The notes beneath the pieces are model-generated. The model saw only the letters and a program-made list of their open reading frames with translations, ran no database searches and was not told the origin of the DNA. The translations under genes were made by a program, and so were the position numbers. Positions 46,216-50,725 of a stretch of 64,000 bases of DNA are shown here, piece by piece. The stretch comes from Cupriavidus gilardii. GTDB lineage: Bacteria > Pseudomonadota > Gammaproteobacteria > Burkholderiales > Burkholderiaceae. Location: the NCBI RefSeq assembly GCF_008801915.1, contig NZ_VZOV01000005.1, forward strand, positions 62,001 through 126,000, read 5' to 3'. The number at the start of each line of letters is the position of its first letter. Within the stretch, counting starts at the first letter, position 1.

Positions 46216-47418
46216 ATGTTTGCTCATATCGACGCCTACCCTGGCGACCCCATCCTGTCCCTGAACGAGAACTTCGCGCAAGACCCGCGTCAGGACAAGG
46301 TCAACCTGACGATCGGCGTCTGCTTCGACGACGAAGGCCGCCTGCCGCTGATGGCCGCGGTGCGCGAGGCCGAAGCCGCGCTGGTCGCCGACCAGGGGCC
46401 GCGCCCGTATCTGCCGATGGCCGGCATCCCCGGCTATCGCCAGGCCGTGCAGCAGCTGGTATTCGGCGCGGACAGCGCCGCGCTGGCCGAGAACCGTGTG
46501 GCCACGATCCAGACGCTGGGCGGCTCGGGCGCGCTGCGCGTCGGCGCCGACTTCCTGAAGCGCTATTTCCCCGAGGCGCAGGTCTGGATCAGCGATCCGA
46601 GCTGGGACAACCATCGCGTGGTGTTCGAGCGCGCCGGCTTCCAGGTCAACAGCTATCCCTACTATGACGACGCCACCGGCGGGCTGCGCTTCGACGCGAT
46701 GATCGATGCGCTGCGCCAGGTGCCGAAGGGTCATGTGGTGCTGCTGCACGCCTGCTGCCACAACCCGACCGGCGTGGACCTGAACGAATCGCAATGGCGC
46801 GAGGTCATCGCCGTGGTCAAGTCGCGCGGCCTGCTGCCGTTCGTCGACATGGCCTACCAGGGCTTCGGCACCAGCCTGGACGACGATGCCTTCGTGATCC
46901 ACGAGCTCGTGCGCGAAGGCGTGCCGTGCCTGGTGGCCAATTCGTTTTCGAAGAACTTCTCGCTGTACGGCGAACGCTGCGGCGGCCTGTCGGTGGTCTG
47001 CGCGAACGCCGAGGAAGCCGGCCGCGTGCTGGGCCAGCTGACCGGCGCGGTGCGCGCCAACTACAGCAACCCGCCGACGCACGGCGCGCGCATCGTCGGC
47101 AAGGTGCTGACGACCCCGGCGCTGCGCCAGTCGTGGGAGGCCGAACTGGCCGCCATGCGCGACCGCATCGCGGCAATGCGCACGGCGATCCACGACAATC
47201 TGCAGCGCCTGGCCGGCGGTGCGGACCTGTCGCGCTATCTCGCGCAGCGCGGCATGTTCACCTACACCGGCCTGTCGGCCGAGCAGGTCGACACGCTGCG
47301 CGCCGAGCATGGCGTCTATCTGGTGCGCTCGGGCCGCATGTGCGTCGCCGGCCTGAACCACGGCAACGTGGCGGTGGTCGCGAAGGCGATCGCCGGCGTG
47401 ATGGGGGCGAAGGGCTGA
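46216..47418 (+). CDS. tyrB: Aromatic amino acid aminotransferase
   Basis: PLP-dependent class I aminotransferase of 400 residues. MFAHIDAYPGDPILSLNENF and KVNLTIGVCFDDEGRLPLM are typical of TyrB/AspC. HACCHNPTGVDLNESQW near 179, the PLP Lys in ANSFSKNFSLYGERCGGL near 245 and a C-terminal Arg in YLVRSGRMCVAGLN near 376 complete the active site. It transfers the amino group of tyrosine or phenylalanine to 2-oxoglutarate, giving the HppD substrate. Acting as aspartate aminotransferase is also possible. A strong terminator follows. Confidence 0.93.
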   Translation: MFAHIDAYPGDPILSLNENFAQDPRQDKVNLTIGVCFDDEGRLPLMAAVREAEAALVADQGPRPYLPMAGIPGYRQAVQQLVFGADSAALAENRVATIQTLGGSGALRVGADFLKRYFPEAQVWISDPSWDNHRVVFERAGFQVNSYPYYDDATGGLRFDAMIDALRQVPKGHVVLLHACCHNPTGVDLNESQWREVIAVVKSRGLLPFVDMAYQGFGTSLDDDAFVIHELVREGVPCLVANSFSKNFSLYGERCGGLSVVCANAEEAGRVLGQLTGAVRANYSNPPTHGARIVGKVLTTPALRQSWEAELAAMRDRIAAMRTAIHDNLQRLAGGADLSRYLAQRGMFTYTGLSAEQVDTLRAEHGVYLVRSGRMCVAGLNHGNVAVVAKAIAGVMGAKG

Positions 47419-47433
47419 TCCTGCAGCGCCAGG

Positions 47434-47473
47434 GAAGGGCCAGCGTACGGAAGTGCGCTGGCCCTTCTTCGTT
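47434..47473 (+). terminator. Rho-independent terminator after tyrB
   Basis: GAAGGGCCAGCG and CGCTGGCCCTTC form a perfect 12-base stem around a 10-base loop, followed by TTCGTTT. It lies 15 bases after the tyrB stop and just before the end of the convergent gene at 47473. Confidence 0.85.
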
Positions 47474-48165
47474 TACATCACCATCCCGGTCGCGGAAGCC
47501 AGCGCCGGAATTGTCCATCCTCTTCCCAGCAGCACCATCCGGGTATGCAGTTCGCTGAGCACCGGTTCGTAGACCTCCGGTCCCAGATAGCACAGCGTCT
47601 TGCTGCGCAGATCGACATAGCCGCGCTCGTAGTTGTGTGCCAGGGCCTCCCATAGCGCATGCGCGCCGGGCGATTGCCGTGCGCCGGTGATCAGGCAGTG
47701 TCCCGCGTCCAGATACGAACGATAGATCGCCGAGGCCAGGCCGCGGCGCTGGTAGGGCGGGGCGAATTTCGAATGCGGTGCGCGCAGATGGCGGTCGGCG
47801 CGGCGGTCCAGCTCGACCAGCCGGTTGAAGACCGTATAGCCGGCAAGCCGGCGCCGCACGGTGTCTTCCACGTAGAAGTAATACTCGCCATCGGCCTCGC
47901 GGTAGCGCAGGACCAGGCCCGGCTGCGCGGATGGCGTGGCCGCGATGCCGTGCAGGCAGTCGCCGGGCAGGTAGAGCCGGTCGTACAGCGCCTGCAATTC
48001 GGCCTCGAGCGCATCGGGCGCGTGCTCGACGTCGATGCGCAGTTCGATGGCGCGCAGCAGGCGGGCGAGGGCAGGGCGGCTCGGGAGCCGCCGAAGCGGG
48101 GCGTCGTGCCATGAAGCAGCGCCCATTGCCGCGTGAGTCAGCATCGATGACATGGCGGTGCTCAA
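47473..48165 (-). CDS. GNAT-like acyltransferase, function unknown
   Basis: Protein of 230 residues (TTG start at 48165 overlapping the upstream stop as TTGA) or 226 residues (ATG at 48153). The middle has LVLRYREADGEYYFYVED and RRLAGYTVFNRL, the beta strands expected of an N-acetyltransferase core. SKFAPPYQRRGLASAIYRSYLD near 135-156 (residues in that span) then holds the Q-R-x-G-x-A acetyl-CoA signature. It is 60-90 residues longer than a minimal GNAT domain. No signal peptide is present. It is co-transcribed with the beta-helix protein gene, so that protein or its ligand may be the acyl acceptor. This is inference only. Confidence 0.6.
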   Translation of the reverse strand: MSTAMSSMLTHAAMGAASWHDAPLRRLPSRPALARLLRAIELRIDVEHAPDALEAELQALYDRLYLPGDCLHGIAATPSAQPGLVLRYREADGEYYFYVEDTVRRRLAGYTVFNRLVELDRRADRHLRAPHSKFAPPYQRRGLASAIYRSYLDAGHCLITGARQSPGAHALWEALAHNYERGYVDLRSKTLCYLGPEVYEPVLSELHTRMVLLGRGWTIPALASATGMVM

Positions 48166-49028
48166 CCGGTTTGCCAGGCGCCGCTGACCAGGTTCTGCGG
48201 CTTGCTGCGGGCAACGATGCGCGCGCTGACGTCCCAGATATCGATCCGCACGTTCAGTCCCGCATGAATGCCGTATCCCGGTCCGGTGATGATCTCTTCG
48301 TCGGTCTGCACGCCTTCGCCGGCCTTGATCGCGCTATCGGCGACGATCGACCCGGTTGCCTTGATGCCCCAGCCGGCTTCGATATGGTGGCTGCTGCGGA
48401 TCGCGCCGCCGGCCTCGATGCCCTGTCCGGCGCTGATGCCGTGGCCCTGCAGATCGCCGTCGGCCTTCAGCGTGCCGCCGCAGCGGATCGCGTGCTGCGC
48501 GGCGATGCTGTCGCCCGCGCGCAGGTTGCGGCCGACGTGGATGTGTTCGCCGGCGCTGATGTCCCAGCCCGCGCGCACGCTGCCCTTGGCATCGAGGAAG
48601 GTCGCGACGTCGATGCCCCATGCGGCCTTGATGTCGCCGCCGGCTTCGATGGCGCCGCCGCTGTACAGATTGCCCGCGCAATCGATATCTTCACCGGCGA
48701 TGATCGCGGTGCCGGCGCGGATGCCGCCGCCGGCGCGGATCGTGCGTCCGGCCCGGACTACCGAATCGACGTCGATGGCGCCGCGCACGACCAGCGTGCC
48801 GGCGAAGACCAGCGCGCCGGCGTTCAGCGCATCGAGCGTCAGCACGGCATCGGTGGGACCGAACTGGTCCAGCAGCCAGCACGCGTCGCCGACGCGGCCG
48901 GCATCGACAAGCGCATCGAGCAGCCGCTGGTAATCGCTGCCGTCATGCCGGTTGCGCAGGAACCATTTGTAGCCGTCCGCGCAGGGGCGTTTCGCCTTGA
49001 CGAAATTCTGGGTGAGTTCCATGGACAT
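48162..49028 (-). CDS. Hexapeptide-repeat beta-helix protein, bactofilin-like, function unknown
   Basis: Protein of 288 residues. The N-terminal 65 residues form a compact module with CADGYKWFLRNRHDGSDYQR and VGDACWLLDQFGP. From about 75 to 262 the chain is an almost uninterrupted series of six-residue steps of the form Ala/Gly-Gly-x-x-Ile/Val/Leu-x, such as AGRTIR, AGGGIR, AGEDID, AGHxIx-like and AGWGIK, roughly thirty in all. Such a pattern predicts a long beta-helix, as in bactofilins and left-handed helix acyltransferases. There is no signal peptide. The start MSMELTQNF follows a weak GAGG. It is coupled to the GNAT-like gene. Confidence 0.65.
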   Translation of the reverse strand: MSMELTQNFVKAKRPCADGYKWFLRNRHDGSDYQRLLDALVDAGRVGDACWLLDQFGPTDAVLTLDALNAGALVFAGTLVVRGAIDVDSVVRAGRTIRAGGGIRAGTAIIAGEDIDCAGNLYSGGAIEAGGDIKAAWGIDVATFLDAKGSVRAGWDISAGEHIHVGRNLRAGDSIAAQHAIRCGGTLKADGDLQGHGISAGQGIEAGGAIRSSHHIEAGWGIKATGSIVADSAIKAGEGVQTDEEIITGPGYGIHAGLNVRIDIWDVSARIVARSKPQNLVSGAWQTG

Positions 49029-49099
49029 CGGGACCTCGGTAGTCGGTGAAAGGGAGGGCTGGCGTGCAGCAGGCGGTAGGAGTTGCCCTCTCCCCCACC

Positions 49100-49289
49100 C
49101 CCTCTCCCGCAAGCGGGAGAGGGGAGCCATCAGCGAGCACGGGTGCGTAGGGGATCGATGCCGCGACGGCCTGCTCCCTCTCCCGCAAGCGGGAGAGGGA
49201 GCCGTCAGCGAGCACGAGCGCGTACGCCTTCGAAGCCGCGACGACCTGCTCCCTCTCCCGCTCGCGGGAGAGGGCTGGGGGAGAGGGCA
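49100..49289. repeat. Tandem array of CCCTCTCCCGC hairpin repeats
   Basis: Two full units of 76 and 75 bases begin at 49100 and 49176, and a partial third begins at 49251. Each starts CCCTCTCCCGCAAGCGGGAG (third copy CTCGCGGGAG) and carries a conserved tail with CAGCGAGCACG and GCCGCGACG before CCTGCT. The hairpin core matches the single element at 4722-4759. The array lies in the 276 bases between the small membrane gene and the beta-helix gene. Confidence 0.8.
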
Positions 49290-49304
49290 ACACGCCCAAA
49301 CCGC

Positions 49305-49418
49305 CTACAGCGGATTCAGCACGAGAAATTCAACCGCCAGATAAAGCGCGGCAATCCCGGCCATGGCAAGCACGGCCCGGTAATAGACGGCGGCGGATTT
49401 TTTGGTCTTGGCGGACAT
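49305..49418 (-). CDS. Small membrane protein, 37 residues
   Basis: The peptide starts MSAKTKKSAAVYYRAVLAMA and continues with a single hydrophobic helix to the C-terminal EFLVLNPL. Basic residues at the N-terminus predict a cytoplasmic N-side. A good ribosome site (GGGAGA) lies 4 bases before the ATG at 49418. The length, one helix and positive start are typical of small bacterial membrane peptides. It precedes the beta-helix gene on the same strand, but the hairpin array lies between, so co-transcription is unsure. Coding status is supported only by these features. Confidence 0.45.
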   Translation of the reverse strand: MSAKTKKSAAVYYRAVLAMAGIAALYLAVEFLVLNPL

Positions 49419-49861
49419 GCGCTCTCCCATTTGCACGTTGAACAGTGGACCGCCATCGATGGATGGCGATCCCCGGGCAATGTGCCGTGCCAGGGAGACC
49501 GGTGTGGGACTGTGGTGTGGCTTAGTCCCTGTCTCCCCGCACGGCTGAGAGAAGCACGGCGGGAATATGGGATGTGCGGGCGACCATGGCCTGGCGCGCG
49601 GCAAAGCCGCAAGCGTCGCCGTACGCGCGTGCCGCCACAGCACGCAGGGCATGCTGGTAAAGGGCGGTGCGGCGCAGGACAGTTTGCATTCGGTCGCGAA
49701 TTTGAAGGAAGGAAGATTGGCCAGACGCAGGCGCGAATGGCGGGCTTTCGGTGGAGCGTTTGCTCCATCGGCCCTGAAAAAAGGGGCGAAAGCGGGGCAA
49801 GTATCCCATAGCCGTCGAGAAGTCTCAACCTTGCGGCGCACCACGCACCGGCAACAGGACC
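49419..49861. other. 443-base stretch without a confident gene
   Basis: It separates the 37-residue membrane gene from the end of the MerR/TPR gene. Open frames cross it on both strands, but they are Pro/Arg/Cys-rich and lack ribosome sites or family motifs. It probably holds the promoter of the small membrane gene. I see no RNA gene or repeat in it. Confidence 0.4.
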
Positions 49862-50725
49862 TCAGCGGCAGTACTTCCGGTACTGATTGAAATGCCGGAT
49901 CGCGCGATGCGCGTCGCCCAGTTGCTCGTGCAGGCGGGCCGCGTTGAAATGCGCGTCGGCCATGTCGGGCGCGATATCGATGCAGCGGTGATAGCTGCGC
50001 AGTGCGTCCTCGTATCGCTCCAGATCTTCGAGCGTGACGCCGAGATTGAAATGGAGCAGGGGTTCGTCGCCGATGGCGGCGACCGCGTCCCGATACAGCG
50101 ATTCGGCCTCCTGCACGCGCCCGGCCTCGGTCAGCAGGCAGCCGAGGTTCAGGTAGGGATCGGTGTAGTCGGGCGCGATCGCGATCGCGCGGCGGTAGGC
50201 CTGCTCGGCCTCGCGCATGTCCTGCGCTTCGAGCTGGCAGCCGAGCTGGAACCACGTGCCCGCGTCGGTGCCGGCATCGGTCCCAACGTCGGCGCGGTCG
50301 TCCGCGCGGTCCTCCGCCTTCCTCGCCGACTGGATCGACAGCACCGCGCCCGGCTGCGACCGGCTCGGCTGCAGCTCCATCACCAGCTGGCCGGTTTCCA
50401 CCTCCCACTGGCGATGCGCTTCCGAGACGACCACGCCATTGCCGACCGCCGCAACACGGACCCCCGACAGCGGCCGGTCCTGCGACCATGCCTTCAATCG
50501 CTGCAACGCACGAGTGACGCGGCGCGGCGGGACATTCGCCTTCTTCAGCGAATCCGCGGTGCGGATCAGCACCACGTCCTGGAACGAGTATTTGCGTTCG
50601 CCGCGGCTGCCCTTGGCCGGTTCCAGCAAACCCGCGCGTGTCAGGCTCGCCACCGTCCCGCGCGAGACGCCGAACTTGCCTTCGATGTCCTTCAGCGTGA
50701 AGCTGTCCTTGCCGACCGCGCTCAT
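49862..50725 (-). CDS. MerR-type HTH protein with TPR repeats, coupled to ku
   Basis: Protein of 287 residues with two parts. Residues 8-78 are a MerR-like winged HTH (FTLKDIEGKFGVSRGTVASL, then LLEPAKGSRGERKYSFQDVV). A middle region of about 85-135 is followed by an Asp/Ala/Gly/Thr linker with a short repeat (DVGTDAGTDAGT near 146). At least three TPR units follow from 155 to 285, including YLNLGCLLTEAGRVQEAESL and LLHFNLGVTLEDLERYEDAL. The ATG overlaps the ku stop (ATGA). The fusion suggests a DNA-binding regulator that contacts a protein partner. A role in end-joining control is inferred from coupling only. Confidence 0.8.
   Translation of the reverse strand: MSAVGKDSFTLKDIEGKFGVSRGTVASLTRAGLLEPAKGSRGERKYSFQDVVLIRTADSLKKANVPPRRVTRALQRLKAWSQDRPLSGVRVAAVGNGVVVSEAHRQWEVETGQLVMELQPSRSQPGAVLSIQSARKAEDRADDRADVGTDAGTDAGTWFQLGCQLEAQDMREAEQAYRRAIAIAPDYTDPYLNLGCLLTEAGRVQEAESLYRDAVAAIGDEPLLHFNLGVTLEDLERYEDALRSYHRCIDIAPDMADAHFNAARLHEQLGDAHRAIRHFNQYRKYCR

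What the first reader, a model, noticed from the sequence alone, without database searches (positions are those of the whole stretch)
47473..49418. Compact unit of a GNAT-like enzyme, a hexapeptide beta-helix protein and a one-helix membrane peptide
Seen: roughly thirty consecutive six-residue repeats in the 288-residue protein, after a distinct N-terminal module; a TTGA stop/start overlap with an acyl-CoA-type GNAT gene; and a 37-residue membrane peptide upstream on the same strand. Known: bactofilins form polymers from similar beta-helices, and left-handed hexapeptide helices occur in acyltransferases. Inference: this may be a small cytoskeletal or scaffold system with its own modifying enzyme and membrane anchor. 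I do not recognise a described system with these three parts.
Basis: partly seen in the sequence, partly recalled or inferred. Interest (0 to 1): 0.7.

Follow-up and report, generated by a model that had tools for sequence, protein, structure and literature searches.

The report
Shared RNA leader governs scattered genes
The enzyme, beta-helix and tiny membrane-peptide genes are real, and in many relatives of this bacterium the same RNA leader (a short reading frame ending in a hairpin) stands in front of them even where they lie apart, which points to one coordinated, probably stress-linked gene set rather than a cytoskeleton.

Summary
The three genes are present as described. AlphaFold2 gives the 286-residue protein one long confident beta-solenoid between an N-terminal helical module and a C-terminal cap; the enzyme models as a GNAT fold; the peptide is under purifying selection (pN/pS 0.32). 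The larger finding lies upstream: a conserved leader with a promoter-like site, an upstream reading frame (uORF) whose stop falls in the loop of a GCCGTGC/GCACGGC hairpin, and a second, covarying hairpin. In 60 Cupriavidus genomes this leader precedes 15 of 16 beta-helix genes and 37 of 39 GNAT genes, including 26 of 28 GNATs that lie away from any beta-helix gene. Of five genomes with the two genes apart, four carry a leader copy at each. All 16 beta-helix genomes also have the GNAT; 23 GNAT genomes lack the beta-helix. In other Burkholderiales a second hairpin leader stands before the same genes, often with rnk or uspA between. I read this as a leader-controlled, probably stress-linked gene set; its biochemical function is unknown. 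The cytoskeleton reading is not supported: both solenoid ends are covered in the model, and the GNAT usually lives without the beta-helix.

The parts
49800..49828 (-). promoter-like site TTGAGA-N17-GATACT with TG before the second hexamer
   Evidence: only promoter-like site found in 47300-50000, shuffles mean 0.3; a site at the same place (mostly TGGACA-N17-CATAAG) in most of 46 leader sites, GGNATA in 44 of 46. Consensus match, not proof
49522..49689 (-). upstream reading frame (uORF), 55 codons, stop inside the loop of hairpin 1
   Evidence: frame open at least 45 codons before the hairpin in 45 of 46 sites (other frames 17 and 32); stop 24-42 nt after the 5' arm starts in 45 of 46 (other frames 1 and 0). 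Amino acids not conserved: pN/pS 1.14
49484..49545 (-). leader hairpin 1, arms GCCGTGC (49539-49545) and GCACGGC (49484-49490)
   Evidence: covariance model R1 hits
49447..49472 (-). leader hairpin 2
   Evidence: 3 of 7 pairs change on both sides, covariation score reached by 0 of 500 shuffles
49305..49418 (-). single-helix membrane microprotein, 37 aa
   Evidence: found after 43 of 46 leader sites; pN/pS 0.32
48162..49028 (-). capped beta-solenoid protein, 288 aa (or 286 from 49022)
47473..48165 (-). GNAT-fold protein, 230 aa, overlaps the beta-helix stop by TTGA

Best explanation
This is one operon of a small leader-controlled gene set. A promoter-like site is followed by a uORF, two hairpins, a membrane microprotein, a capped beta-solenoid protein and a GNAT-fold enzyme. 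Shown here by comparison: the same leader sits at beta-helix and GNAT operons that have moved apart, so the genes are under common control. Inferred: the leader reads translation. The uORF stop lies in the loop of hairpin 1, so a ribosome finishing the uORF would overlap one arm and keep the hairpin open; when uORF translation fails the hairpin closes and changes output of the genes behind it (through access to the ribosome-binding site just after hairpin 2, or through Rho, since no intrinsic terminator was found). Inferred from the company of rnk and uspA in other genera: the set answers stress or growth arrest. Inferred: the GNAT acylates a target not yet known, the solenoid is an accessory scaffold or adaptor for it, and the microprotein acts at the inner membrane.
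For: Leader precedes 15 of 16 beta-helix and 37 of 39 GNAT genes in 60 Cupriavidus genomes; 26 of 28 GNATs away from a beta-helix gene have it 144-275 nt upstream, and such lone-GNAT leaders were not used to build R1. G430, G431, G432, G448 carry a copy at each gene. All three strong R1 hits among 150 order genomes (E at most 2e-11; the next best is 2e-4) stand before a beta-helix gene. uORF frame and stop position kept. Hairpin 2 covaries. Second leader type R2: 6 hits in 200 order genomes, all before rnk, beta-helix or GNAT genes; five of the six were not in the training set. rnk (GreA_GreB) and Usp confirmed by Pfam in four proteins tested. All 16 beta-helix genomes in the genus have the GNAT.
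Against: No expression, binding or enzyme data. uORF amino acids are not conserved (pN/pS 1.14; shifted frames gave 0.81 and 0.49), so its translation is inferred from frame and stop only. Hairpin 1 shows almost no covariation (7 of 7 pairs never vary in A9) and was part of how loci were picked, so pairing there is not proven and it could be a protein-binding site. In G002 a partial beta-helix gene has no leader hit, and in the leader of G429 next to beta-helix and GNAT the frame is not closed in the hairpin. Beta-helix genes without any GNAT exist outside the genus (G116, G289 of 9), and none of 13 loci titled Comamonas has a GNAT within the fetched flanks. Six of 47 leader hits precede neither gene.
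Confidence: 0.5

Rival explanations
1. Cytoskeletal or scaffold polymer: the beta-helix protein polymerises like a bactofilin, the peptide anchors it and the GNAT modifies it.
For: Single long beta-solenoid of about ten turns; GNAT overlap TTGA; beta-helix never found without the GNAT in 60 Cupriavidus genomes.
Against: No bactofilin match; solenoid ends covered by a helical module and a C-terminal cap in the model; GNAT and peptide occur widely without the beta-helix; Comamonas loci lack GNAT nearby and no peptide was matched there.
Confidence: 0.1
2. Leader plus hydrophobic microprotein is a regulated small membrane toxin or stress peptide, and beta-helix and GNAT are cargo or antidotes recruited behind it.
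For: In Cupriavidus the leader and peptide occur without either large gene (L201, L225, L228, L229); peptide found after 43 of 46 leaders; purifying selection.
Against: Outside Cupriavidus the leader precedes the beta-helix gene with no peptide seen in the loci I read (Ralstonia, Variovorax, Comamonas). No antitoxin RNA was looked for. PADLOC gave no match.
Confidence: 0.2
3. Shared ancestry only: the leader travels with the genes because the operon was duplicated and split, and its conservation reflects recent descent, not control.
For: Most leader copies are in one genus; hairpin 1 scarcely varies.
Against: The leader reaches Ralstonia, Variovorax, Comamonas and Oryzomicrobium loci (36 of 43 loci) where the surrounding sequence differs; hairpin 2 covaries; a second leader type does the same on the same genes elsewhere.
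Confidence: 0.12
4. Prophage-derived or accessory metabolic gene set of no coordinated function.
For: Phage proteins resemble the beta-helix: one phage record at 30.8% over 48% of the query and two BFVD models at 30% and 33% identity.
Against: No phage gene recognised among the neighbours printed; strong co-occurrence with the GNAT; a viral-contig scan with A1 gave no relative.
Confidence: 0.08

Closest known systems
rnk-leader and greA-leader attenuators (Naville and Gautheret 2010, PMC2965389; passages seen)
   Same: RNA leaders upstream of rnk; the paper describes attenuators with terminator and antiterminator for greA/rnk
   Different: Those are in Pseudomonas, Enterobacteria, Yersinia and bacilli according to the passages; the leaders here have a uORF and no intrinsic terminator was found at the window leader, and no Rfam family reached threshold in type-2 loci
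FapA beta-solenoid domain (PF03961)
   Same: weak profile match over residues 70-207, E 3e-4
   Different: 20.8 bits against a cut-off of 31; different N-terminal and C-terminal modules
Bactofilins
   Same: a beta-helix built of short repeats (recalled)
   Different: no family match; both ends of the solenoid are covered in the model
GNAT acetyltransferases
   Same: predicted fold; RRGLA-type motif; best Foldseek hits are GNATs at E 3e-3
   Different: window protein itself has no Pfam or NCBIfam match; no near solved relative

Membership tests
GNAT superfamily | GNAT fold | tested here: met
   AlphaFold2 mean pLDDT 80.9 (first 41 residues mostly poor), Foldseek top hits are acyl/acetyltransferases, best E 2.6e-3, TM 0.3-0.4: weak but consistent
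GNAT superfamily | family profile match | tested here: inconclusive
   3 of 19 members match Acetyltransf_1 (best E 9e-4) and 3 match Acetyltransf_7 (best 0.0098); the window member none
GNAT superfamily | acyl-CoA dependent transfer | not testable with these tools
   needs enzyme assay
Bactofilin | bactofilin profile | tested here: not met
   no match at E up to 1 in Pfam or NCBIfam
Bactofilin | exposed solenoid ends allowing end-to-end polymerisation (recalled) | tested here: not met
   model has helices 5-54 at one end (pLDDT 56-62 over residues 1-30) and a conserved cap 241-286 at the other; prediction only
FapA / DUF342 | profile above curated cut-off | tested here: not met
   20.8 bits against 31
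Left-handed hexapeptide acyltransferase | structural match to LpxA-like enzymes | tested here: inconclusive
   LpxA/LpxD and serine acetyltransferases appear in Foldseek only at E above 0.1, rmsd above 11; handedness not measured
Rfam leader families | match to a described family | tested here: not met
   no match over the leader at E up to 1 (window 47000-50500); type-2 loci only SECIS and tRNA at gathering threshold (7 loci)
Leader-peptide attenuator | translated uORF coupled to alternative hairpins | tested here: inconclusive
   uORF frame and stop kept, amino acids not conserved, no intrinsic terminator found

The most novel reading that the evidence does not exclude
Two unrelated, undescribed leader RNAs, each pairing a uORF with a hairpin, independently govern the same stress-linked gene set (membrane microprotein, capped beta-solenoid, GNAT, and in other genera rnk and uspA) across Burkholderiales, sensing the act of uORF translation rather than a peptide sequence.
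Probability: 0.3. Interest if true: 0.78.

Novelty: new variant of a known kind. Interest (0 to 1): 0.6.

Why it matters
If true, it gives a compact, testable regulon defined by its RNA leader: three protein families of unknown function tied together by shared control even where their genes are far apart, plus a second leader type on the same genes. It would link a GNAT-fold enzyme and a capped beta-solenoid to the rnk/uspA stress response, and add a leader that may read translation by the position of the uORF stop rather than by peptide sequence.

Tried and rejected
Bactofilin or LpxA-like membership: no profile or convincing fold match. Phage origin: one weak phage record, two viral structural hits, a viral-contig scan with A1 that returned no relative and a second scan whose single hit covered only repeats. 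Plasmid search: five Cupriavidus records, four of which I fetched. Defence system: no PADLOC match. Conserved leader peptide: rejected at the amino-acid level by pN/pS; an earlier position test on unaligned codons was uninformative. Intrinsic terminator in the leader: none found. Conserved neighbours of lone GNATs outside Cupriavidus: by eye, none common to all. Papers: six full-text searches listed nothing I recognised as describing this gene set or leader; I read only passages of PMC2965389 and saw the rest as listings. Most subscription papers are not in that library.

Rows dropped: five of the 14 order-level beta-helix genomes (G078, G130, G204, G231, G261) have only partial matches and were left out of the count of nine. 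Of 48 leader rows, the antisense echo in G020 was left out, and that row and the weak hit G435:C2 were left out (46 sites, the window included). Lone GNAT means no beta-helix within 3 kb on the same strand. The two GNATs without a leader are G449 (near a contig end) and G442 (partial GNAT match). Fisher values are not corrected for kinship. The hairpin-1 pattern was used to choose the 36 loci behind R1, so its invariance there is by construction. In one search one measure (further pair types, 498 of 500 shuffles at least as high) and the number of double-change pairs (82 of 500) do not exceed the shuffles. Type-2 structure was written by hand from the six sequences counted.

Full report
Observation. 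The three features are there. The minus-strand beta-helix ORF spans 48162-49028 (288 aa); relatives start at its third residue. The GNAT-like ORF spans 47473-48165 and overlaps the beta-helix stop as TTGA. The 37-residue peptide spans 49305-49418. The hexad repeat exceeds chance: 23 of about 31 best-phase positions are aliphatic or aromatic, against a maximum of 18 in 10,000 shuffles. The window lies in a Cupriavidus-like genome; its nearest named relatives are C. cauae (98% identity), an unnamed Cupriavidus MAG (96%) and C. gilardii (94%).

Fold. With 36 aligned sequences AlphaFold2 gives the beta-helix protein mean pLDDT 92.2: helices 5-40 and 44-54 (the first 30 residues poorly predicted), strands about every six residues from 60 to 240 at pLDDT about 96-99, and a C-terminal cap. 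Foldseek against PDB gives one hit under 0.001, a tapirin C-terminal domain (TM 0.29 by query length), and LpxA-like enzymes only at E above 0.1. Pfam shows a sub-threshold FapA match. A profile of the family touches designed PPR repeats at residues 29-53, in keeping with a short helical hairpin. The enzyme models as a GNAT fold at mean pLDDT 80.9, best Foldseek hits being acyltransferases at E 2.6e-3; Pfam GNAT models match 3 of 19 family members and not the window protein.

Spread. One genome-contig scan gave 39 relatives of the beta-helix, nearly all with titles from Burkholderiales. In 274 genomes of the class, only the window genome and one genome of the same order matched at E 1e-15. Among 399 genomes of the order, nine have the full-length protein (five more have partial matches), 14 have the GNAT, seven have both, and three have them adjacent. 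In 60 Cupriavidus genomes 16 have the beta-helix (one partial), 39 the GNAT, and all 16 of the former are among the latter; 11 are adjacent and 5 apart. So the beta-helix seems to need the GNAT within this genus, not the reverse. Outside it the rule breaks: G116 and G289 have the beta-helix and no GNAT match, and none of the 13 loci titled Comamonas has a GNAT in the fetched flanks.

The leader. Upstream of the beta-helix gene, 36 of 43 loci carry GCCGTGCGG, a loop, and GYACGGC within 700 nt, from Cupriavidus through Ralstonia, Variovorax, Oryzomicrobium and Comamonas. In 30 of the 36 an open frame runs through the 5' arm and stops in the loop; in six (L020-L022, L024, L025, L031) the stop lies just before the arm. 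A covariance model R1 from 31 of these gave three strong hits in 150 order genomes, all before a beta-helix gene, the rest being weak (E 2e-4 or more). In Cupriavidus it hit 41 of 60 genomes. It stands before 15 of 16 beta-helix and 37 of 39 GNAT genes; 26 of 28 GNATs away from a beta-helix have it 144-275 nt upstream. Of the five genomes with the genes apart, G430, G431, G432 and G448 have a leader at each; G002 lacks one at its partial beta-helix. Leader alone with the peptide, with no beta-helix or GNAT match, occurs at L201, L225, L228 and L229, and with a GNAT remnant at L189.

Anatomy of the leader, 46 Cupriavidus sites. A site resembling TGGACA-N17-CATAAG lies upstream in most; GGNATA is in 44 of 46; mean best score 8.9 against 7.2 in one shuffle each. 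The frame is open at least 45 codons before the hairpin in 45 of 46 (17 and 32 in the other frames) and stops 24, 39 or 42 nt after the 5' arm starts in 45 of 46 (1 and 0 in the other frames). Its amino acids are not conserved: pN/pS 1.14 over 25 sequences in six groups, against 0.32 for the peptide; shifted frames of the uORF stretch gave 0.81 and 0.49. So what is kept is a frame and a stop, not a peptide. Hairpin 2 covaries: three of seven pairs change on both sides, 10 such cells (0 of 500 shuffles) and a covariation score of 0.222 (0 of 500); slid controls are far lower. Hairpin 1 does not vary in that set, so its pairing is unproven. Folding of the whole leader is more stable than shuffles in most of the 19 sites tried (z from -0.9 to -6.3). 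No Rfam family matches over the leader and no intrinsic terminator was found.

A second leader. Some loci outside Cupriavidus lack the first hairpin. Six of them share another, AGCCCGGCGAYC with a loop holding GCGCA and a pairing 3' arm; three of 11 pairs change on both sides (18 of 500 shuffles), covariation score reached by 1 of 500. Model R2 from these six gave six hits in five of 200 order genomes: G201 and G072 upstream of GNAT operons, G121 twice (its GNAT, and its beta-helix gene although the two lie apart), and G087 and G213 upstream of rnk-like genes with neither beta-helix nor GNAT known there. Five of the six are outside the training set. Among 29 chosen beta-helix/GNAT loci R2 also hits L121, L124, L026, L040, L045 and L132. 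Pfam confirms GreA_GreB (rnk-like) in L232, L235 and L007 and Usp in L124; rnk in the other loci is by clustering or by eye.

Reading. The simplest account is a gene set whose membership is written by its leader: beta-helix, GNAT and, in Cupriavidus, a membrane microprotein, joined elsewhere by rnk and uspA. The geometry suggests that a ribosome terminating on the uORF would overlap one arm of hairpin 1, so the leader could report translation; this step is inference. Stress is inferred from rnk and uspA. The roles of the three proteins are open; I favour GNAT as the enzyme, solenoid as accessory scaffold and microprotein as membrane partner. Known rnk and greA attenuators (PMC2965389, passages) show that leaders on rnk are a known kind of control; I found no description of these leaders in the six searches made, which cover only openly licensed papers.

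Noticed in passing
window 49082-49291: Repeat block between peptide and beta-helix gene: three 24-nt palindromic units CCCTCTCCCGCNNGCGGGAGAGGG spaced 75-76 nt, inside a larger inverted repeat.
   Followed up: partly
L176 10640-10756 region (G429:C2 about 1114640): Behind a leader plus peptide, a second tiny hydrophobic ORF (38 aa by the listed start) with no beta-helix or GNAT.
   Followed up: no
L123 (G307:C2), upstream of the lone GNAT: A different tiny hydrophobic ORF (read by eye) directly before a GNAT in another genus of the family.
   Followed up: no
L129, L130, L133 upstream of the beta-helix gene: Short frames ending AYAR(S/A)KPG before the stop, possibly a third leader variant; R2 did not hit there below E 0.05.
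   Followed up: no
L174 and L177: Leader and peptide followed by what look like GNAT remnants; described only.
   Followed up: no
L047 6001-6842: Beta-helix gene truncated to about its N-terminal module, still directly before an intact GNAT frame.
   Followed up: no
L028 4322-4380 (-): SECIS_3 element, 84.1 bits against a gathering score of 63, in a betaproteobacterial contig.
   Followed up: no
window 50265-50309 (-): Sub-threshold match to the guanidine-II riboswitch (21.5 bits against 32), likely chance.
   Followed up: no
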